From: Niebla homalea
Taxonomy: Eukaryota; Ascomycota; Lecanoromycetes; Lecanorales; Ramalinaceae
Assembly: GCA_019925105.1 (NCBI GenBank)
Contig: JAHGAU010000014.1
Location: 992,001-1,056,000, forward strand
DNA length: 64,000 nucleotides
Reading direction: 5' to 3'
Shown here: one piece after another, positions 17,405-29,399 of the stretch
How the letters are laid out: every line of letters starts with the position of its first letter
How positions within the stretch are numbered: position 1 is the first letter of the stretch
The notes under the pieces: generated by a model
The model's input: only the letters and a program-made list of their open reading frames with translations
Told to the model about the DNA's origin: nothing
The model's database searches: none
Made by a program: the position numbers and the translations under genes

Positions 17405-18466
17405 AGTTTAATATTCTGGTACTTTTAAATTTACGGTAAGACTCCTTCGAGCCAATAAATAAATCGCTAACGAGTATGCCTAAACTATATACTTGACCCT
17501 GCGATTCGTCATTTCGGGTCCTCGAATTATATCAATATTCTTAACGCTTATCTTAACTCATAATTTGGCCGCCATCTAAAAGCTTCGCCCGGCCTCGCTC
17601 GACATCTCCTTAATTATTTTCAGCGAAATCTCCCAAATCGTATATACGCTGTATCGATAATTTTCACCATTTTATATAGCTTTCTAACTTAGAAGTTCGC
17701 GTTGACGCTAATAATAAATAGTACAATATTCCTTTATTTTATAATACTTTTATCGGATTATCGCTTTAGCCTAAACGATCGCTAGTGCTAAATATCCTAA
17801 AGTTATAATTATCCGCTTCGTACTCTTCCGTATCGAATTATCTAATTAATTATTAATCTCGATCGTTTTAAGGATTAAAGTAATAGCTTTATTAAGTTCC
17901 ATCGCGTCCAGCTCGTAGAACCCGATAATAGTATAAATTTGGCAATTCGGGTTTCGGGTTATCATTAAGATAATCCCTCGATTCCCCACCGGAAAGTATG
18001 GAGAGATATCCAGTCGAAGATCATCAGCATTATTTAAGATTAGGGCCTATAACTCCAATATATTCGATAACCATCGTTTAACAGCATCCACATGAGGTTC
18101 TAGACCGCAGACCTTGGCAACCTATAAATAACCTCGCTCGAGGCTTTCTATACTGCTCGTATCGATCCAAAATATGCCCCAAAATCTGAAGCACCGTTAA
18201 TGCAGGCCTGGAATATAATAATAAATAACATACTTACTCTTCACGATGATCTTCCGCAAATTTAAGGCATACCTGCGTCTTGCCTGATCCACCTAGCCCG
18301 TGAATGACAAATCTCTTCTGTTGTTGCTGCAAGTTTAGGGTGGTGGATGGTAGACAGTGACTTTATAGTCGTTTACCAATTTCTTCTCGTCCAGTGAAGA
18401 TAGAGCTGGGGTTGCGGGGCACCTCGAAGTGTTTATTGTGGAATCGAGAGGTCGGAGGTATTGGAT

Positions 18467-18545
18467 CTAGATCCCCACGTGCTGTTAGCAATTGTAGCAT
18501 CTTGGCCAGCTATATAACTAGCAGCATCGAGAAGGGCTGACGAAC
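18467..18545 (-). other. Inferred intron 1 of the NLR
   Basis: 79 nt on the minus strand, starting GTTCGT and ending ATCTAG, with GCTAAC about 18 nt before the acceptor. Removing it joins the motif exon in frame to the linker that leads into NB-ARC; without it the frame ends at a TAA just downstream (18433-18435). Confidence 0.65.
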
Positions 18546-18576
18546 CTGGCTGACCCCCATCCCTAATGTGAACCTG

Positions 18577-18612
18577 TCCCAGGTTCGACCCTAACTGAAA
18601 ACCTTGATTGTT
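18577..18612 (-). other. Sigma-type amyloid motif of the NLR
   Basis: Residues 13-24, NNQGFQLGSNLG. It matches the C-terminal motif of the hydrolase at 28740-28775 in the pattern N-x-x-G-F-Q-L-G-x-N-x-G. It lies ahead of the NTPase domain, as in fungal NLRs that carry such motifs. Confidence 0.75.
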
Positions 18613-19016
18613 ATAACCCGCAAAGCTTGTCATAGGATTGGCAGTCATTATGCTGAGTATGTCGGGCCTGATACTACGGTTTCAGGTGGTATGTCACCGC
18701 GTCCGCACCAACTCATCGAGGTAGGCAGGGTTGAAAGGCGTCGAAGATGTTCGTTGGACGGAGTAGGCTTTACTTATTCTCAGTTTTGCTTGTTACTCTC
18801 GCTAATAGATATACTTTGAACATTGCTTGATCCACTAGCTTAAGCGTTTAGGTTATCGGTTCGTATTCGTATCTCGCCCTTATCGTTAACGCTGTCTGAT
18901 ATTAACACTCTTTCTTATCCTGTTAAAGACTCAGGGAATATGGATCTGAATATGATGGAATTCTAACTATGTAGGTATAGCATATATGAACTTGTGATAT
19001 AAAAGTAAAGTGCATT

Positions 19017-19041
19017 GCGCTAAGCCCTTTTGGGTTAGCGC
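19017..19041. repeat. Short hairpin-forming inverted repeat
   Basis: GCGCTAAG-CCC-TTTT-GGG-TTAGCGC can fold into a 10-bp stem with a one-base bulge and a TTTT loop. Function unknown; it lies in the intergenic region. Confidence 0.55.
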
Positions 19042-19070
19042 GGGCAACAAGCGAGGCTCACACAACTGAG

Positions 19071-19122
19071 CCGAAGAGCCGCATGGGCCGCATAGGCCGA
19101 AGGGCCGCATGGGCCGCATAGG
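19071..19122 (+). repeat. Two tandem 26-bp GC-rich units
   Basis: Two copies of CCGAAGAGCCGCATGGGCCG + CATAGG differing at one base, with a partial third start (ATGAAGGG). Each unit also contains an internal GGGCCGCAT duplication. Confidence 0.75.
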
Positions 19123-19797
19123 ATGAAGGGTAACTCCCTTACATATCCTGTTTATTGTGAAATCCAAAAGATGTGTCTCCCGCCGCTAGTGATTGGGGGG
19201 TAGCTCGAGATTTTGGCTGAGTAAGTCAGGATTTGGATGGCTAAAACAAAGGCCTTGCGGGCCGTCAAGTAACGTCCAGTTTCTGTGAGGGATATAGGAG
19301 TACTTATAGATAAGATTCCCGTCCAGAGTAACTCCAAAACAGATAGTTATTGGACCTATTTAAATGGATTTTAAGAATCTTAGTTAAATCAATAATCTAT
19401 CAATAATCTATCAAAACAGGCCCAATAACCACCTGTTTCGGAGCTGGTCTAAACGGGGATATTATCTATAAGTACTATTATAACCCTTACAGAAACTGGA
19501 CATTGATTAACGGCCTATAAAGCCTTTATTTTGGTTGATTCAAAGATTTACGGGGAAAAATTGAATCTTATAGGGCTAAGATTTCAAATTTTTCTTCAAT
19601 ATTTATTTATCTAAACAAGTCCAATAACTATCTGTTTTGGAGCTACTCTAAACGGGAATCTTATTTATAAGTATTACTCTAACCCTTATAGAAACTGACG
19701 GTTTATAAAGCCTTTATTTTAGCTATCTAAATTCCACCCTTCTAGCCGGCCTCAGCCAGCCCTCAGGGCTACCCCCGAAGCACTAGCGGCGGGAGAC

Positions 19798-20166
19798 TGT
19801 TAGACAAGTCCGCCGGCTCACAGCTGGCGGGGCTAGTCAAAAGGGGTTTATAGAAGACGTAAAATATAACTGTAGATTTAATACTTAGATTCAAAAGGTA
19901 AATTAATTCTTAAGGAATTATAAACTGGCTGAACGTAAGCTTATCTTAAATAACCGGTTTTAAGGATAGCTTAAATTACGGTAATAATAACTTTAACCCC
20001 GGTTATAATTACGTATACCTATATATAAAAGGCTTAAACTCTTAAAGCCTTTGGTTTTAAAAGTTACCGTTTAAACGGTTACGCCACTTAACTATAGCCC
20101 TTAAGTAAGCCGGTACTTAATATATTTAATATACGTTAAACGCTTATTAAACGTTAAGCGTGAATA
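19798..20166 (-). repeat. 3' LTR of second Gypsy element (369 bp)
   Basis: Starts TGTTAGACAAGTCCGCCGG; same length as the right copy. The first 60 bp are not RIP-mutated. Confidence 0.9.
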
Positions 20167-23100
20167 ATATTTCCTTTTTTATATTTTAATCCTTAAAAAT
20201 AAAGGTTATATAAATAAGTAATAATATTATAAAGAAAACGTTAATATATAACCGGTATATATATAAGGCTTATTAAAAACCTATTATTAAAACCTAATAA
20301 GAAAAAAGTAAAAAAAAAAGAATTTATATATATATTTTAAAGTATATATTAAAAACGTTATTTAATATATTAAACGTAATAAAATATTATACGTTAACGT
20401 ATAATTAACGTATTATAATAAAATTTATTAAAAACCCTTTTATAAAACCCAATAAGAAAAGATAAATAAGAAAAGAGTTTTAATAATATTAATTAATAAT
20501 TAAATTATTACTTAAGAATTTATTTATTAATTTATTATAACGTAACGATAATTAAATAATAAAAAATTTATTATTATTTTAAACTTCTTTTTTTTCTTTC
20601 TTTAATAATTTTAATAACTTTTATAAATATATTATATATAAACTTTAATTACGATATTTAATTAATATATAAAAATAACTTTTATTTATATTCTTATTAT
20701 TATTATAATAAGTTACGTTAATTATACGTAAGCATTTATATACTTAATATAATAATAATCCGTAATAATAATAAATAAATATACGTTAATATAACGTAAA
20801 TAAAAGAATAAAATAAATATTATTTTAATATTTTAACGTATAATACTTATATAATACGATAACGTTTTATTAACGTTTTACGATAAAAATATATTTATAA
20901 TTAAATAAAAGTTAATAATATATAAATATTTTATATTCTATATATTTTTTATAGAATAAGCCTTATACTTATAATATTAATCCTTATAATTAATATAAAT
21001 TTAAAGGTTATAATAATTATTATTATACCGTAAAATAATATTATTATTAAAGCGTTAACGTTTTAATTAAATATAGTTTCCGGATAAGTTTATTAAGAAG
21101 GTACGTAAGGTAATACGTAAACTTAATTGGGCGTTATAGCCCCGGGAAAGATTTTATGTATTACGTTAATATAATAAATTTTTTTATAAATTTAAAGTTT
21201 AATATAAATTATACGGGTATATAAAAGCGATATATTATATAATTAAGTTAATATATTACTATATTTAATTAAAGGCTTATAGGTTAATAATGGCTTTTAA
21301 AGGGGAATTAAAAAAATAATTATCTTAAGTTTTTACCGCGGAAACAGAAATCGTTAAATTTAAAATAAAAGTATATATTAATATAACGATAACTTAACGT
21401 TAATGTTAATATATTTTAAATAAAAAGCAATATAAAAGAAAATTAAGCTTCCTTTATTAAGCGTTCCGTTAATTACTTTAAATTTAAAAGCTTTAAGACG
21501 GATAAAAACGAAGAAAAGGATATAAAAATAAAAAAAGTATAATTTATTTTAACGGCGGCGGTTAAAAGGTCGGCCCTAATTCCGGAGAATAATAATTCCG
21601 GAATATATTAAAGAGCTTCTTAATTTATTAATATTAAAATTAAGTTAATTTTAAAATAAAAAAAGAATAAAAAAATAAGGTTATTATATTCTGTTTAATC
21701 CATTAATATTTATCCGGCTTTAAAAGTATAAAAGAAAAAAGGAAAAAAAAAAGAAAAAAAAGGCCCGTTACGTTAATATAATAGCGCTATAAATTTTTTA
21801 TTTTTTTTTACGTATATTATAAGCGTTTAATATTTAACGTTTAAATGCTTATAATCTATATATTATTAAATAGCAATATAAATACGATATTCAAGCCTTC
21901 GGAACGTTAATTAAATTATAATATATCTTAATCGATCCTTAATCGTTAATACTTTAACTTTATTTCTTTTTAACTTAATATTAATTTATTAATAAATACC
22001 TTTAAATACTTATAATTTATTTTTACGTTTTTATATTTACGGTATTATCGTATTTATGGATTAATTATTATAATTATAATAAACGAATAAACGTTATTAT
22101 AATATTAATTATATTAAACGTATTATATCCTATTAAATAGAATTATAATAAATCCTTAATAACTTACATAAAAAAAACGTATTAATAAAATAAATTACGA
22201 TATTAATTATTATATATAATTATTAATTATAATATAAAACTTTTAATTATCGTAATATTAACTTTATACCCGTTTCCTCTTTTTTTACGTTATTTTATTA
22301 TATTATTTTTATAACTCTTATACGTTACTTAAATTACCCGTTAAAATCTATTAATTATATTTTAAGCCTTAATTAAGTTACTTAACTTTATATTAAATAC
22401 CCTAGGAGTTTTTAATATAATCCGTAATTTCTTTAATTTCTTATTCTTTTTTATTATTAATAAATTTTAAGGGATATATTATTACTTCCGCCATTTTATT
22501 ATTAACTTAAATATAATATAACTTAAGAAAGGAAATATAAATCGTAAAATAAATACGATAACTTATAAAAAGGAAAAAACAATACGCTTATTATTTAATT
22601 TTATCGTTAATTTTAAAGGGTTTAACAAATTAAAATATAAATTTCTTATTTAATTACTTAAGTTTAAGGTTCTTAATATTTAATATTATTAAATCGTTAA
22701 CATCATATAACTTTAATTAATATTTTTTATTATAGGTCTATTTAATTAATTTTAATATATAATATTATTGTTCCGTTAATTTCTTATAAATATTATTTAA
22801 AATTTTAATTTTTTCTTTTATTATAAATACTTTTTTTTTAATAAGTTTATCCTTAAACTTAAAATAGATTTTAAAATTATATTTATAATTAAAGTAAAAA
22901 GGGCTATATTTTAAACTTAAATAATATATATTTATATAAGAATACTTAATTATAAGTAATAAATTTACTTAATTTATTTAATTTATTTATTTTAAATTAA
23001 TGAATATTCTTAAGTATTACTTTATTCCTTAATTTTAACGTTTCATTTATTTATTAATTTAAAAGTAAAATACGGTATTAAGTTTACGTATTATCTTTAA

Positions 23101-24499
23101 ATAATAATATATTAAACGGGATTATTATTAATAAAAACTCCGTTTTTATAAATAATTATTAAAGTTTAATATATTATACTTAAAGAAAACCTCCTTAAAT
23201 AATAATTTAATTAATATAATAACGTTTATATTTTTTATTATAAGTAAATAACGATATCTCTTTATATAATGGTTTATAATTATTAAGATTAAGTCGTAAA
23301 CTTACCTTTTACGTTTATTAAAAGGTAAACCGGTAACGAAATTTATAATTAACTCTTTTTAAGGTTATATTAAAGGAAGGAATTAAGTTAATTTACTATA
23401 AAAATAATAATAATATACCTTAATTCTTTAATATATATTATATATCTTAACGTAATCCGTTACTTAGACTTTTAAACCGTCTTAATAATACTTTTAAGTT
23501 AATAAATTATAAGTTTTATTAACGTTAAAGTAATTTATTAATTTATTATTATAATATTTATTAATTAATTCCTTTTCAATTATTCCGTTTTTAAGGATAT
23601 ATAGACGGTCATTATATTTAATAAGATTAATTAAATTAATACTTTAAGCTTTATTAAATCGCAAATAATCTTAAGCCGGTTTAACGGTAACTTCTTTAAT
23701 TTTATAAATAAACTTATTATTAACCTATAAATCTTTAATAAACTATTATATTAAAATTCATTTTTTATAAGCGTTTTTAAATAATTAATATATTTCCTTC
23801 CGTAGGATAATAACTTAAATACCCCTTAATATAAGTAAAAACGTATAATTTATAGTTACGGCCCGTTAACGTTCCAATAATTCTTTTAATTAAAAAGTAA
23901 ACTTATTCTATAACGTAAATAAAAAAGTAATATTAAAAGGTAAGACTCTTTTATAATCTAGACGTTTTAATGGTAAATTAATAAAGTTTATTTTACTTTA
24001 ATAATAAAATATTTTAAAGTTATAATTAATAAATTTCAAAGCTTATTTAACTTAATATAAGCTTAAAATTAACTATTTTATATATTTTTAAAGGTTATTA
24101 TAATCCGTTTATACTTAAATAATTTTAATACTTCCTTTTAAATAATAACGTTATTATTTAAACGCTATAATAATAATAAAAAGCTTTTAATTATACGTTT
24201 TATAATTTTATTTAACGGATTATATTTTCCGGGATTAATAAATTATTAAACGTTAATAATTCTCTTTAAACTATTAAGATAGGATACCGGCGATAATAAA
24301 ATTAAACGTATTAATCTTTACTTATACCCCCTTTTTTAAATCGAAATAACGGAATAATAACGCATTATTAAATATATTATATAACCGGTTAAATACCGCC
24401 GTTACGGCGTTATTCTATTTTAATAACTTAGCCTTCTTTCCTTTTTTATTATCCTTAAATAAACTTATTAAAAATTGAATTATCCTTAAGTATTCATAC

Positions 24500-25150
24500 A
24501 TAAAACGCCTATAAAAATTGGAAAACCTTAAAAAGACCTAGATATCCCGGTAAGTCTTTGGGGTAAATTAATCCTTAATTATTTTAATACGTTTTTAATT
24601 TATTTATATCCCCTTTATAAAGATTATAAATCCTAAGAACTTAACTTAAATAATATTAAATTAATATTTCTTTAAGTTAATATAAAGTTAAAATTAACGT
24701 AATTAATTAAGGATTTATTTAATATAATATTAATAATCCGCTGGCTTTTTATTAAAAATAAGAATATTATTAAAATAAACTATATAAATTATATTGATAA
24801 AACCGGTAAAAGCTTAATTAATATAAACTTAAAAAGTTATTAAAGTATTAATTAATTTAAATAATATAATTAAATATTCGAAATAATTATAACGTATATA
24901 GAATATTATTTTCTATTTATTATTTTACTTAATTTAAAACCGGTAATAAATATTTTTAAAATTTAATTTAATAAACCGTAAAAAGTTATTTAACCGGTTA
25001 AGAGTCTTAATAATTAAAAATAATAAGTATCGATTTTTAACCGTAACCGTATTTAAACCCTAATAATCTATATAAAGACGAAGGCCGTTATCCTTTTTTA
25101 AAATAAAAAAGCTAATGGTACTTATAAAGGATATTAAGTAATAAATCCAA
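24500..25150 (-). pseudogene. Gypsy reverse transcriptase remnant
   Basis: The minus strand gives FINIIYIVYFNNILIFNKKP (about 24735-24800), equivalent to the YLDDILIFS active-site block with both Asp changed to Asn by G-to-A. Further downstream comes KFLGFII (about 24618-24650), equivalent to the family's VKFLGHVVS. TAA/TAG codons occur throughout. Confidence 0.7.
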
Positions 25151-27157
25151 CCCCGGGTTAAAATATTATTAAAATACCGCCGGAACTCCGCTAGCTTAAT
25201 CCTAAATAGGTTATATAAAAGTTTATAAGTTAACTTTTTTCCATTTAAGTCGATTATATAATCATCCTTTTTTAACTTAAATAAAGTATTAATTATCTTA
25301 TTAAAAAAGATATTTATATAATTATTTAATTCTTACGGAATAATTAGATTAATAAAGTCTTATATTACGGTTATATTTATAGAACCTTAAATAAGGCTTT
25401 ATAATACTTTTTTTAAGGGCGTTATTATTATTTTAATATATATAATTATAAAGATATTACTAATCTTTATTAAAGTTTAATTAAATTCTTAAATGTTATT
25501 AATTTATAAATTATTAAATTTAACCTTAAAACGCTATTAATTAAACGCCGGATTAAATATAATCTTAAAAGACTTTAATATAAAGAAATTTAAAATTATA
25601 TTTAATCCGTCTTAATCTATAATATAAAAAAATATTTTATATAATTTTGCTTATCCTTAATTATTAATTAAATTATATTATAATCGATAAACTTTATAAT
25701 AATAGACCTTATTATTATTAAATAATTTAATTTATAGTAAAACGATAAAAATAAGCTATAAGTTTTATTAAATTATAAATTATTATAAAATTAAATTTAT
25801 TTAAGCTCCTATATTAAGTAACATTATAAGTAATTATTAATTACCGTTAAGCTTAATTTAACTTTTAATATAAAAAATAAAGTTAATCTCTATTAATTTT
25901 TATTTTAACTTTAATTCCAAAATATTATTAAAACGTTAACGTTTTTTAACCCCGTATATTTCTTATTTATAGTACTTATAACTATAATTTTAACGTTATC
26001 TTTTTTAAAATAATTAAATAAAATATAATCCTTTTTATAATAAATATAATATTCAAGATCTTTATATATTAAATTAAGTTTTAATTTAACTTTATGTTTT
26101 TTACGACGTTAATTATTAACCTTAATTAAATAAGCTGGTTTTATATTATCGTTCTTAAGCCTTAATACCTTATTATTAAAAGATTTACTTTTATTAATTA
26201 AATAATTAGTATTAATAATAACGGTTATAATAAAACATTTTAAGTTTCTTTTTATATAATAACCACCGTAATAATAACGTTATAAATACTTAAAACGTTT
26301 CCGGTAAAAATAATTTTAAATTTTAAGTTTAATAATAACTTTATAAAAAGTATATAAGCCTTAAATTTATCCAATAAAATAAATAAATCCTCTTTAATTT
26401 TTTTAAGATAATTACGGAAAATAATAACCTTTTAATTTAACCGTTATTTTATATTTTTAAAACACTTATAATAAGATAATTAATAATTCTTTAAGTTAAT
26501 TATTCAATTTATAAATTTAACCTTAAACTCTTTAAAAATAAAAATCCGGATTAAAAAAGGGTTTAGGTTTTAAATAATATAATTAATAAATTATAAATAA
26601 TATATAATTTTAATATAATTATTTAAAAAAATAATCTAGGCTTAATAAGAAAGACTTTTCTATAATAATAAATTATTATTAATATTTACCTTCGGACTTA
26701 CCCGTATATTTAAATAAAATAACCGGCTTAAAGGATTTATTATACTTAAGGGGTAAAAGGATATTTATAGCCTGTTAAGCGGTAATATAATACGTCCTTA
26801 ATAAGGGGTTCCTAATATCCCGATTAATATTATTAAGACCGTAAAAAGAAAACGACGCTTAAGAATTTTAATTTTACTTTTTAATTAATTAGTTTTCCGT
26901 TTTAATTTTAACGTTTAAACCTTAATTAAAGTTTTATTACGTTAAAGTCACGTTTATTTTAAGCAATTTAAGTTAATTTAATATTTAACCGGCGCTTTAT
27001 ATAATACGATATTTCCTTTAAGGGAAGGTTTTTAATTTAATCCTTAAATTAATCCTTAAAGGTTTTTATTATTAATTATTTTTATAAATCGTTCCGGAGA
27101 ATAAAAAATATATTTTATTCCGGGTTTTTTTTATTCTAAAAGGAAAAAGAAATAAAA

Positions 27158-27526
27158 TATTAAATAAATCCGCCGGCTTATAATTAATAAAATTAATTAA
27201 AAAAAATTTATAAAAAACGTAAAGTATAATTATAAATTTAATACTTAAATTCAAAAAATAGATTAATTCTTAAGGAATTATAAATTAATTAAACGTAAAC
27301 TTATTTTAAATAATTAATTTTAAGAATAACTTAAACCATAATAATAATAATTTTAACCCCGGTTATAATTACGTATACCCGTATATAAAAGGCTTAAACT
27401 CCTGAAGCCTTTGGTTCCAAAAGTTACCGCTTAAACGGCTACGCCACTTGACCATAGCCCTTAAGTAAGCCGGTACTTGGTATGCTTGGTATGCGCTAGG
27501 CGCTTGCTGAGCGCTAGGCGCTAACA
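27158..27526 (-). repeat. 5' LTR of second Gypsy element (369 bp)
   Basis: Ends GCGCTAACA followed by GAGAC. The outer 130 bp keep GC-rich repeats (GCTAGGCGCT) that appear RIP-converted in the left copy. Confidence 0.9.
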
Positions 27527-28019
27527 GAGACACATCTTTTGGATTTCACAATAACTTCCATACCGAGATGAAGTAGCAACGTATCAATTCATTTTTACTA
27601 CCAGAAACCCTGTCAAGATATCTCGTTGAGTAAGTGCACTTTCTTATATATGTCGGATGGACAACTTTCCGCTGAAAGAATCACAGTATCGTTTTAATTC
27701 ATAGCTTGCACGGCGATCGGATAGGAACTTCAACATATGGTTCAGGAGATGGTTCCATGTTCTGGCCGAAGGATCTTCTTCCGGCTGACACGGGAGAAGC
27801 GCGTATTTTGACCTTCGGATATGACGCGAATATTGCTCACTTCTGGACTCGACCTTCTGAGAACAGAATGGACACATTGTCAACCGATCTTTTGCAGCAG
27901 TTAGAGAATGACCGATATAAGATAGATGCGGTAAGCTTTAATGTCTGATGTGATCATAATTGTGTTGCATAGAGAACTAAGCAGTTGGTGAACAGACGAC
28001 ACGATCAATTATCTTGGTC

Positions 28020-28037
28020 GCGCATAGCCTCGGGGGG
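28020..28037 (+). other. Nucleophile elbow AHSLGG
   Basis: The GxSxG-type lipase motif (here A-H-S-L-G-G) lies right before the donor GTATGT of the inferred intron 28041-28102. It is intact, unlike the presumed catalytic His. Confidence 0.8.
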
Positions 28038-28739
28038 CTTGTATGTGCGAATATATGCATCCAATCACCTTCGATAGTTAGCTGTCTCATCATAAAATCT
28101 AGGGTCTTGTGGATGCGGCCAGCGGTTCTGAGAGTACCAAAGGCCTTGCCAACTGCGTTCGCCGCATTGCCTTCCTTGGAACACCCCACCAAGGCTCCGA
28201 CAAGGCACGATGGGCAGAAACGGCTAGGAGATTCCTTAAAGTCTTCAAAACAACCAATCCGGAGCTCTCGAAGGACCTTGACGAAAAATCAGAGAAATTG
28301 GCAAAGCTTAGTGTTCAATTTCCTAGTCTGCTGACTTCTCGAGCTCAGGCGCCTGAGACTCGAATTGAAGTTGTGTGTTTCTACGAAGGCTTGTCTACAA
28401 GGCTCGGCGGTGTAGATATTGAGGTGGTTTGCTAGCCGACACCAGACCTGCAAAGCATCACTGACTAAGACTTATGAAGGTCGTGAAGGAATCCTCAGCA
28501 TGCCTTTCCGGCTATCCCAGGACTTTGCTTGATGCCGATTATCAAAACATGTGTAAATTCAGAGACCACACGGACATTAACTATACACGGCTGCCAGGAT
28601 TGCTGGCAAGATGGGCTAAAGAGCTCGAAAGAGCGCAGGAAATTTCCGAGGGACAAACCGTACATGCCCAAAGCAATGCTGTACTCTACTGACTTATATG
28701 AAGGCAACCCACACATCTCATACAATCTTCTCTGGGAGT

Positions 28740-28775
28740 AACACTGCGGGTTTTCAGTTAGGACATAACGCGGGC
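28740..28775 (+). other. Sigma-type amyloid motif of the hydrolase
   Basis: NTAGFQLGHNAG in the last exon, 15 codons before the stop. It is identical to the NLR motif at seven of twelve core positions, including the whole GFQLG block. No stop or frameshift affects it. Confidence 0.75.
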
Positions 28776-28820
28776 AACATGAGTGGATTCAGTTTCGGAG
28801 TGCCGAGGGGTGGTAATTAG

Positions 28821-29198
28821 CATCACCAGGTTTGCATCGTAAGTCGTCAATAGAATATAATCGGGTGAACTAAGACTTTACAATCTCTTCTTACAGTATC
28901 ACCTGTGTGCATGCATATAAATTTCTTGCTGTTATAACACCTCCAGTAATAATGATTATTAAGATATAACCTTGTTTCTTGACCTGTTAGAGGTTTGTAG
29001 GAACCTTTATGGCGTAGGGATCTTTAAGTATATTTTGGAATTATAGACTTCGGAGAATTTTGAGGGAGAAACCCTAAAAGTATGAAGATTCTGAAAGTCT
29101 AGGGACCTCTATGCCTTACCTAAGAAGTTTAAGGATTTTAATGTCGTAAAGAATTGAGGAAATCGTAGGATAGAGGAAACCGTAGGGTAGAGAAACCC
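28821..29198. other. Downstream region of the hydrolase, no gene
   Basis: Contains the probable 3' untranslated region and two imperfect 18-bp units (GAAATCGTAGGATAGAG / GAAACCGTAGGGTAGAG, about 29157-29190). No reading frame is convincing. The TPR frame next door may start within this stretch but is not readable upstream of 29199. Confidence 0.4.
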
Positions 29199-29399
29199 TT
29201 GGGGCGATTAGAAGCCGTATACAGGGATGCAGGAGTGTTTTACCATCGAGCATACGCTGGATATAAAAAGACACTCGGAGAGAAGCACCCGACTACTGCA
29301 GTATGCTCGCAGCACTATTCTCCGATGCTTAAGAAGAGAAAGGCTGGTAAGATTTGGAGGTTTATCGGTCTAGAGAAGGGACAGTCGCGAAGAAGCTGA
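29199..29399 (+). pseudogene. Kinesin-light-chain-type TPR fragment, likely NLR C-terminus
   Basis: The frame contains VFYHRAYAGYKKTLGEKHPT followed by TAVCSQHYSPML, which fits the last repeat of the TPR tail typical of fungal NLRs (pattern LYxRAxAGYxxxLGxxHPTTxxCxxHY). Only one repeat is readable, about 50 residues, and the last 17 residues before the TGA look like read-through. There is no start codon; the frame opens at a TTG. It lies on the plus strand, 380 bp past the hydrolase, whereas the NB-ARC part is 11 kb away on the minus strand. It may be the displaced tail of that NLR or the relic of another. Confidence 0.65.

What the first reader, a model, noticed from the sequence alone, without database searches (positions are those of the whole stretch)
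17405..28820. Broken NLR / SesB-like hydrolase pair sharing a sigma-type amyloid motif
The sequence shows N-x-x-G-F-Q-L-G-x-N-x-G twice: at the N-terminus of an NB-ARC protein (18577-18612, minus) and at the C-terminus of an alpha/beta hydrolase (28740-28775, plus). In fungi, neighbouring NLR and effector genes that share a short amyloid motif form signal-transduction pairs (HET-S/NWD2; the sigma motif of Nectria haematococca sesB is the closest parallel I know). That this pair worked the same way is inference. Both genes have decayed, so the window would record the loss of a programmed-cell-death module.
Basis: partly seen in the sequence, partly recalled or inferred. Interest (0 to 1): 0.92.

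Follow-up and report, generated by a model that had tools for sequence, protein, structure and literature searches.

The report
Broken fungal immune receptor–effector gene pair
A fungus, probably lichen-forming, carries the remains of a two-gene cell-death switch whose receptor and enzyme share a short amyloid-like tag of the known PP type; mobile DNA and RIP-type mutation have broken it.

Summary
In detail: the 12-residue motif is at both stated places, well above chance. The family name is wrong. Both copies match Pfam PF17046, the PP motif (its Pfam name Ses_B is a known misnomer), above cut-off; neither shows a NACHT_sigma match. The pair looks like the remnant of a PP-type NLR / SesB-like hydrolase module, comparable to PNT1/SBP of Chaetomium.

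The genes stood head to head about 0.5 kb apart. A terminal-inverted-repeat element landed between them, then a 7.7-kb LTR retrotransposon (5-bp target duplication) inside it. The NLR is dead: 9 in-frame stops; in exon 3 all 8 fall at Gln or Trp of the closest relative, with strong RIP-type bias. But it has no usable start, a probably displaced splice donor, and altered conserved residues, including a His kept in 29 of 29 relatives.

Relatives of each half with the motif exist (7 of 47 hydrolase hits, 1 of 75 NLR hits); linkage there was not testable. The genome holds a second PP locus. A new, decayed member of a known kind; amyloid signalling is inferred.

The parts
18546..18648 (-). NLR exon 1: ATG, N-terminal PP motif and start of linker
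   Evidence: predicted intron 18467-18545 has GT..AG ends; colinear with relative P0048
18571..18624 (-). PP amyloid-signalling motif of the NLR (FAGYNNQGFQLGSNLGQV, residues 9-26)
   Evidence: PF17046 27.6 bits vs cut-off 23.2
18238..18466 (-). NLR exon 2: linker and P-loop (GLGGSGKT), one in-frame stop
   Evidence: 72.5% identity to P0048 residues 33-112
17585..18185 (-). NLR exon 3: rest of NB-ARC region, 8 in-frame stops, RIP-type bias rising towards 17.4 kb; TPR part not recognised
19152..19179 (.). Left inverted arm (28 nt, 100% complementary to the right arm) of a terminal-inverted-repeat element
27527..27554 (.). Right inverted arm of the same element; 13 nt lie between its edge and the only ATG before the hydrolase's first predicted donor
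19798..27526 (.). RIP-affected LTR retrotransposon (termini TGTTAG..CTAACA) inside the right arm of the TIR element; target duplication GAGAC at 19793-19797 and 27527-27531
   Evidence: LTR-like direct repeats 83.6% over 299 nt; 41 matches to the LTR in the genome, the window's own two included; flank letters; RIP indices
27577..27629 (+). Hydrolase 5' exon remnant, no in-frame start codon
27687..27930 (+). Hydrolase exon
27996..28040 (+). Hydrolase exon with nucleophile elbow HSLGG
28103..28423 (+). Hydrolase exon
28480..28659 (+). Hydrolase exon; the conserved His of the ADHxxMCKF-like stretch is Tyr here
28704..28817 (+). Last hydrolase exon with C-terminal PP motif and stop
28728..28781 (+). 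PP amyloid-signalling motif of the hydrolase (FSGSNTAGFQLGHNAGNM)
   Evidence: PF17046 26.7 bits as single exon, 23.4 in spliced protein; cut-off 23.2

Best explanation
This is a pseudogenised PP-type two-gene NLR signalling module. In the working ancestor (inferred from relatives and published systems) the NB-ARC/TPR receptor oligomerised on ligand binding, its N-terminal PP motif nucleated an amyloid, and this templated the C-terminal PP motif of the SesB-like hydrolase, switching the presumed lipase on to kill or arrest the cell. The two genes stood head to head about 0.5 kb apart. A TIR element inserted just 5' of the hydrolase; an LTR retrotransposon then inserted into that element. RIP mutated the repeats and, on the NLR's 3' side, reached into the NLR, giving 9 stops; its TPR part is no longer recognisable. 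The hydrolase, cut off from its promoter side, shows milder decay at start, splice site and conserved residues. Shown: the sequence facts. Inferred: amyloid templating, cell death, splice sites (no transcripts), order of events.
For: PF17046 matches on both sides. Of 47 hydrolase hits 7 carry the C-terminal motif: P0001 (76% identity), P0002, P0006, P0007, P0009, P0017 with GF, P0005 with GL; 5 of 8 relatives scanned pass the PF17046 cut-off. NLR relative P0048 (Wetmoreana sp., Teloschistaceae): GFQLG motif, NB-ARC region, TPR. NLR exon 3 against P0064: 53 of 67 differences are C>T/G>A in the window direction, 32 in RIP context, 4 reverse; 8 of 8 stops at Q or W; against P0048 44 of 78 forward, 5 reverse. 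Spliced NLR reading has 9 stops. Nested insertion with target duplication, multicopy LTR, TIR arms found only here at up to 2 mismatches. Hydrolase: His is Tyr (29 of 29 relatives with a residue there have His), Gly of HG is Ser (30 of 31 Gly), Trp is Ser (30 of 31 Trp). Published PP systems.
Against: No linkage of the two genes was shown in any relative. Only 1 of 75 NLR hits (P0048) shows the motif, and none of the others among 26 hits of an N-terminal search; P0048's motif scores only 14.9 bits, its NB-ARC 18.6, both below cut-off. 40 of 47 hydrolase hits lack the motif, some being truncated models. The hydrolase shows no RIP bias against P0001 (16 forward, 21 reverse of 64 differences), so its decay rests on few residues; its count of odd residues at 77 conserved columns (8) is within the range of relatives (0-35). 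The NLR exon 2 stop falls at a His of P0048, not Q or W. Motif similarity is higher within roles than within the pair: window hydrolase vs C28 HeLo effector BLOSUM 68, vs its own NLR 49. No expression or fibril data.
Confidence: 0.8

Rival explanations
1. The hydrolase is still expressed as a catalytically dead PP protein that can polymerise and modulate the second PP module (C28), as HET-s does towards HET-S.
For: 319-residue frame without a stop once predicted introns are removed; PP motif above cut-off; conserved His lost; motif close to the C28 effector motif, 12 of 20 identical; no RIP bias.
Against: No in-frame ATG between the element edge and the first donor; four residues after the nucleophile elbow are missing compared with relatives, as if a splice donor had moved; the TE edge sits where the promoter should be; the C28 HeLo effector itself has an in-frame stop.
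Confidence: 0.06
2. The shared motif is sigma-type.
For: SesB-like hydrolase and NLR context also occurs in sigma systems (PMC3321046, passages).
Against: No NACHT_sigma match listed at E <= 5 for either piece; none above cut-off genome-wide; the published sigma motif is about 40 residues with three repeats of two submotifs, not seen here.
Confidence: 0.02
3. The two genes are unrelated neighbours brought together by transposons, each having had another PP partner such as the C28 HeLo-NLR pair.
For: Linkage in relatives untested; effector motifs of the two loci resemble each other more than each resembles its own NLR.
Against: Head-to-head spacing of about 0.5 kb after discounting a precisely bounded nested insertion; both motifs share Phe at the first hydrophobic core position while both C28 motifs have Leu; known PP systems are clustered genes.
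Confidence: 0.12

Closest known systems
[quoted passage not shown]
   Same: NLR with PP motif controls, among others, a putative lipase (SBP) with PP motif; neighbouring genes (PMC5485727, PMC7885112, passages). That SBP is SesB-like and carries the motif C-terminally is recalled; PP-bearing sesB homologues beside STAND genes are in PMC3321046.
   Different: No HeLo-type effector in this cluster (one lies on another contig); genes separated by nested transposons; both genes lesioned; core GFQLG where the published consensus has GLQL
HELLP/PNT1 of Podospora anserina
   Same: PP motif on an NB-ARC/TPR NLR and on its effector; the C28 locus of this genome has a comparable arrangement
   Different: The window's effector is a hydrolase; the C28 effector matches Pfam HeLo (PF14479) and has an in-frame stop
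sesA/sesB/het-eN of Nectria haematococca (sigma motif)
   Same: SesB-type hydrolase plus STAND/NLR neighbour sharing a terminal motif
   Different: Different motif family; no sigma profile match here
All-in-one SesB-NLR fusions
   Same: Same kind of hydrolase; P0072, P0106 and P0125 carry hydrolase-type sequence, by eye or by precomputed domains, on the same protein as the NLR linker
   Different: Here the two halves are separate genes sharing a motif

Membership tests
PP motif (PF17046) | Profile score above curated cut-off | tested here: met
   27.6 and 26.7 bits vs 23.2; hydrolase side 23.4 in spliced protein
PP motif (PF17046) | Pseudopalindrome centred on Q, G-phi-Q-phi-G core, flanking N and G | tested here: met
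   Letters at 18571-18624 and 28728-28781; definition
PP motif (PF17046) | Near the NLR N-terminus (most at positions 5-9) and at the effector C-terminus | tested here: met
   NLR motif starts at residue 9, hydrolase motif within its last 40 residues; published position
PP motif (PF17046) | Forms amyloid/prion and cross-seeds partner | not testable with these tools
   Needs peptide or in vivo assay
SBP/PNT1-type module | NLR with nucleotide-binding domain and TPR repeats | tested here: inconclusive
   P-loop and NB-ARC region homologous to P0048, which has TPRs; exon 2 piece alone scores only 11.9 bits for NB-ARC; window TPR part not recognised
SBP/PNT1-type module | Alpha/beta hydrolase (presumed lipase) effector | tested here: met
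   47 relatives; Pfam hydrolase families match the spliced protein only below cut-off; model of P0001 matches alpha/beta hydrolases by Foldseek, probability 1.00, TM-score by query 0.35-0.49 in the 50 rows shown
SBP/PNT1-type module | Adjacent genes | tested here: met
   Head to head, about 0.5 kb apart once the bounded insertion is discounted; linkage in relatives not tested
SBP/PNT1-type module | HeLo-like partner effector in the same cluster | tested here: not met
   The genome's PP-bearing HeLo effector lies on C28; a third partner is a feature of the Chaetomium cluster, while the P. anserina cluster has two genes
Sigma motif (PF17106) | NACHT_sigma profile match, about 40 residues, three repeats | tested here: not met
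   definition
RIP-inactivated gene (NLR) | Directional C>T/G>A changes at CpA/TpG, stops at Q/W codons | tested here: met
   NLR exon 3: 53 of 67 differences, 8 of 8 stops
RIP-inactivated gene (hydrolase) | Directional C>T/G>A changes at CpA/TpG | tested here: not met
   16 forward against 21 reverse of 64 differences from P0001

The most novel reading that the evidence does not exclude
The orphan hydrolase survives as a catalytically dead, PP-bearing protein that co-polymerises with the second PP module of the same genome and dampens or redirects it: a prion-type regulator derived by receptor loss and enzyme inactivation, parallel to HET-s.
Probability: 0.05. Interest if true: 0.85.

Novelty: new member of a known kind. 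Interest (0 to 1): 0.45.

Why it matters
It gives a readable record of how an amyloid-wired NLR module is lost: insertion between head-to-head partners, RIP damage to the receptor, then slower loss of the effector. It places PP-type NLR signalling in what looks like a lichen-forming fungus. Four searches of the held library (12 of 290, 15 of 582, 10 of 54 and 2 of 2 papers listed) showed no title on PP motifs in lichens; I read none of the listed lichen papers, and a table of HET-s-related motifs names Cladonia (PMC4518210, passage cut off there), so amyloid motifs as such may be known from lichen fungi. Because relatives keep halves with the motif, loss versus retention becomes testable across Teloschistaceae, and the second PP locus offers cross-seeding tests.

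Tried and rejected
Sigma family: rejected. Hydrolase frame breaks as frameshifts: rejected; five predicted GT..AG introns of 44-65 nt give one frame, and relatives align through them. A third genomic copy of the motif on C13: taken as chance. The 28-nt inverted arms as a multicopy element: no other copy with up to 2 mismatches, and the internal part matched only its own place. Close paralogues in this genome: none found; NB-ARC 52% over 62 residues and 45% over 91 (the latter with stops), 35% over longer stretches; hydrolase 39% over 256 residues, 47% over 78. Linkage in relatives by locus tags and contig lengths: two organisms that I noticed in both hit lists (Gyalolechia gomerana, Arachnomyces sp. 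PD_36) have them on contigs of different length, but their NLRs there are patatin and SesB types, so this says nothing about the PP pair. The primary paper on the Chaetomium cluster is not held. Pair-specific co-evolution of the motifs: not supported beyond the shared Phe.

Selections made: of the 47 hydrolase hits I aligned 12 with the window protein (A1) and 32 in A2. In the 77-column test the relatives, each left out in turn, deviate at 0-35 columns and the window at 8, so that count alone is not unusual; in the 42-column test the window deviates at 5 (one is the start Met), relatives at 0-9. The change counts assign each difference to the most RIP-like single change possible; the same rule was applied to the hydrolase, which served as control.
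Full report
What the window is. The window is C14:992001-1056000 of a 50.6-Mb, 52-contig genome. GC falls to 13-20% in long blocks, with islands above 40%, and RIP indices are high in the blocks examined between 15.5 and 32 kb. Named close relatives of the two proteins are mostly lichen fungi such as Gyalolechia, Wetmoreana, Fulgogasparrea and Seirophora; the best hydrolase hit is an unnamed metagenome protein, and non-lichen fungi (Arachnomyces, Venturia, Aspergillus) also occur. Gyalolechia and Wetmoreana are Teloschistaceae. The organism is therefore probably a lichen-forming Lecanoromycete; that is inference.

The motifs. Each matches Pfam PF17046 above its cut-off, and no NACHT_sigma match was listed. 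PF17046 is named Ses_B but is the PP motif: one paper calls it 'PP (misnamed SesB)' (PMC12261475, passages), another took its PP test set from Pfam Ses_B (PMC8086366, passages). The PP consensus FxGx(x)NxGLQLxGxNxGxL, a pseudopalindrome centred on Q, was derived from HeLo, Goodbye-HeLo, sesB and STAND proteins (PMC3321046, passages). The window motifs read FAGYNNQGFQLGSNLGQV and FSGSNTAGFQLGHNAGNM. Genome-wide, PF17046 lists 4 places at E <= 1: this pair and two on C28, one of these below cut-off. NACHT_sigma has none above cut-off and one weak match on C22.

The hydrolase. A plain reading shows frame breaks, but five predicted introns of 44-65 nt with GT..AG ends (27630-27686, 27931-27995, 28041-28102, 28424-28479, 28660-28703) give one 319-residue frame to a stop at 28815-28817. 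There are no transcripts to confirm them. The protein finds 47 relatives, the best 76% identical. Seven of the 47 show the C-terminal motif: P0001, P0002, P0007, P0009 and P0017 with GFQLG, P0006 with GFQMG, P0005 with GLQLG; the other 40 do not, some of them being truncated models. Of 8 relatives scanned, 5 pass the PF17046 cut-off. A model of P0001 has mean pLDDT 81.9, with residues 281-318 (the motif region) below 50; Ser108 sits between a strand and a helix, and His245 follows a late strand. Foldseek places it among alpha/beta hydrolases with probability 1.00 but low TM-scores.

Its decay. Signs of lost function: between the element edge and the first predicted donor the only ATG is at 27568, followed two codons later by a stop. 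Four residues after the nucleophile elbow are missing compared with relatives, consistent with a displaced donor, though P0005 is modelled the same way. At family-wide conserved positions Gly is Ser (30 of 31 Gly), Trp is Ser (30 of 31), Pro is Ser (28 of 30) and His is Tyr (29 of 29 His; counts are of 32 aligned relatives with a residue there). That this His is catalytic is inference from position and conservation. Against heavy decay: the gene as a whole shows no RIP bias relative to P0001, with 16 differences in the RIP direction (7 in context) and 21 reverse of 64, and its 8 deviations at 77 columns lie within the range of relatives (0-35).

The NLR. Exons 18546-18648, 18238-18466 and 18185 to about 17585 follow the relative P0048 (PP motif at 14.9 bits, NB-ARC at 18.6 bits, both below cut-off; TPRs well above). 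P0048 is the only one of 75 NLR hits, and of 26 hits of an N-terminal search, that shows the motif. The spliced reading contains 9 in-frame stops. In exon 3, against metagenome relative P0064, 53 of 67 differences are C>T or G>A in the window direction (32 in RIP context) and 4 are reverse; the 8 stops fall at Q, W and six more Q. Against P0048, 44 of 78 differences are forward and 5 reverse, and the stops fall at Q, W, V, Q, Q, R, Q, Q; the exon 2 stop falls at H. The closer relative is the better guide. Bias grows towards 17.4 kb, where an AT-rich block starts, so the damage seems to have spread from the NLR's 3' side rather than from the insert. P0064's gene model is frame-scrambled at the N-terminus and was used only from residue 170 on.

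What separates them. Inverted 28-nt arms at 19152-19179 and 27527-27554 are identical and occur nowhere else in the genome at up to 2 mismatches. Inside the right arm lies a complete-looking LTR retrotransposon, 19798-27526, with TGTTAG..CTAACA termini and flanking GAGAC duplications. Its two LTR-like direct repeats are 83.6% identical over 299 nt, and the LTR has 41 matches in the genome, the window's own two included (40 of 101 candidates scored). Discounting this nested insertion, the ATG of the NLR and the hydrolase's 5' exon lie about 0.5 kb apart, head to head. The order (TIR element, then retrotransposon) follows from the nesting.

The second PP locus. On C28 a HeLo effector (PF14479, 94.6 and 66 bits in two frames) ends in FSGSHNSGLQLGHNSGSIS, and an NLR with an N-terminal GLQVG motif, NB-ARC and TPRs follows. 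NB-ARC scores 24.5 bits and 22.2 (cut-off 23.5). The two HeLo pieces are separated by one in-frame stop for which I saw no plausible intron. The NLR-side motif is below the PF17046 cut-off (19.7 bits, 18.4). Over 20 residues the effector motifs resemble each other (window hydrolase vs C28 HeLo 12 of 20) more than their own NLRs (10 of 20 in each pair). The one pair-specific feature is Phe versus Leu at the first hydrophobic core position. Cross-talk between the loci is therefore conceivable.

Mechanism and standing. Published PP systems act by amyloid templating from NLR to effector, with a putative lipase (SBP) as one effector in Chaetomium (PMC5485727, PMC7885112, passages). That this module worked the same way is inference from motif, architecture and neighbourhood. 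PP is associated with both pore-forming and enzymatic effectors, often encoded next to the NLR (PMC9815663, passages). A review describes loss and pseudogenisation of module parts as a route to allorecognition systems (PMC10197012, passages). The find is a new, decayed member of a known kind; its value is the clear record of loss and the chance to compare relatives.

Noticed in passing
L018/L019 and L012 (C28:660652-665264, minus strand): Second PP locus of the genome: HeLo effector with C-terminal PP motif upstream of a PP-NB-ARC-TPR NLR; the HeLo frame has one in-frame stop between its two halves.
   Followed up: partly
L050 (C2:356861-361533): A head-to-head NLR / SesB-like hydrolase pair. 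NLR start (KVFAGDCNSQGGGQFVGNNMNTEGGSIHF) and hydrolase end (NNFSGNFYSNGGKITQGGEFHSGGGSMTF) look alike; score 47 reached by 17 of 5000 shuffles; no Pfam match listed for the two motif-bearing pieces at E <= 5. Possibly another amyloid-type motif.
   Followed up: partly
P0049, P0052, P0053, P0054, P0058, P0059: NLRs closely related to the window NLR carry a different N-terminus, GHxxxxFxVxxxxxVQIGDRxY-like, while others carry patatin (P0050), PNP_UDP (P0123) or SesB-like sequence: N-termini seem to be swapped on one receptor scaffold. No amyloid-motif profile is among the families shown for these six (lists capped at 25 for three of them); resemblance to HET-s-type motifs is recalled only.
   Followed up: partly
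window 29169-29300 (+): Weak TPR-like fragment (TPR_10, 15 bits, cut-off 27.5) about 350 bp beyond the hydrolase stop, perhaps debris of another NLR.
   Followed up: no
window 25060-25332 (-): Open stretch resembling a reverse-transcriptase fragment inside the retrotransposon, judged by eye.
   Followed up: no
C39:152538-152810: Another stretch 45% identical to the window NLR over 91 residues, with 6 stops: RIP may have damaged further NLRs.
   Followed up: no
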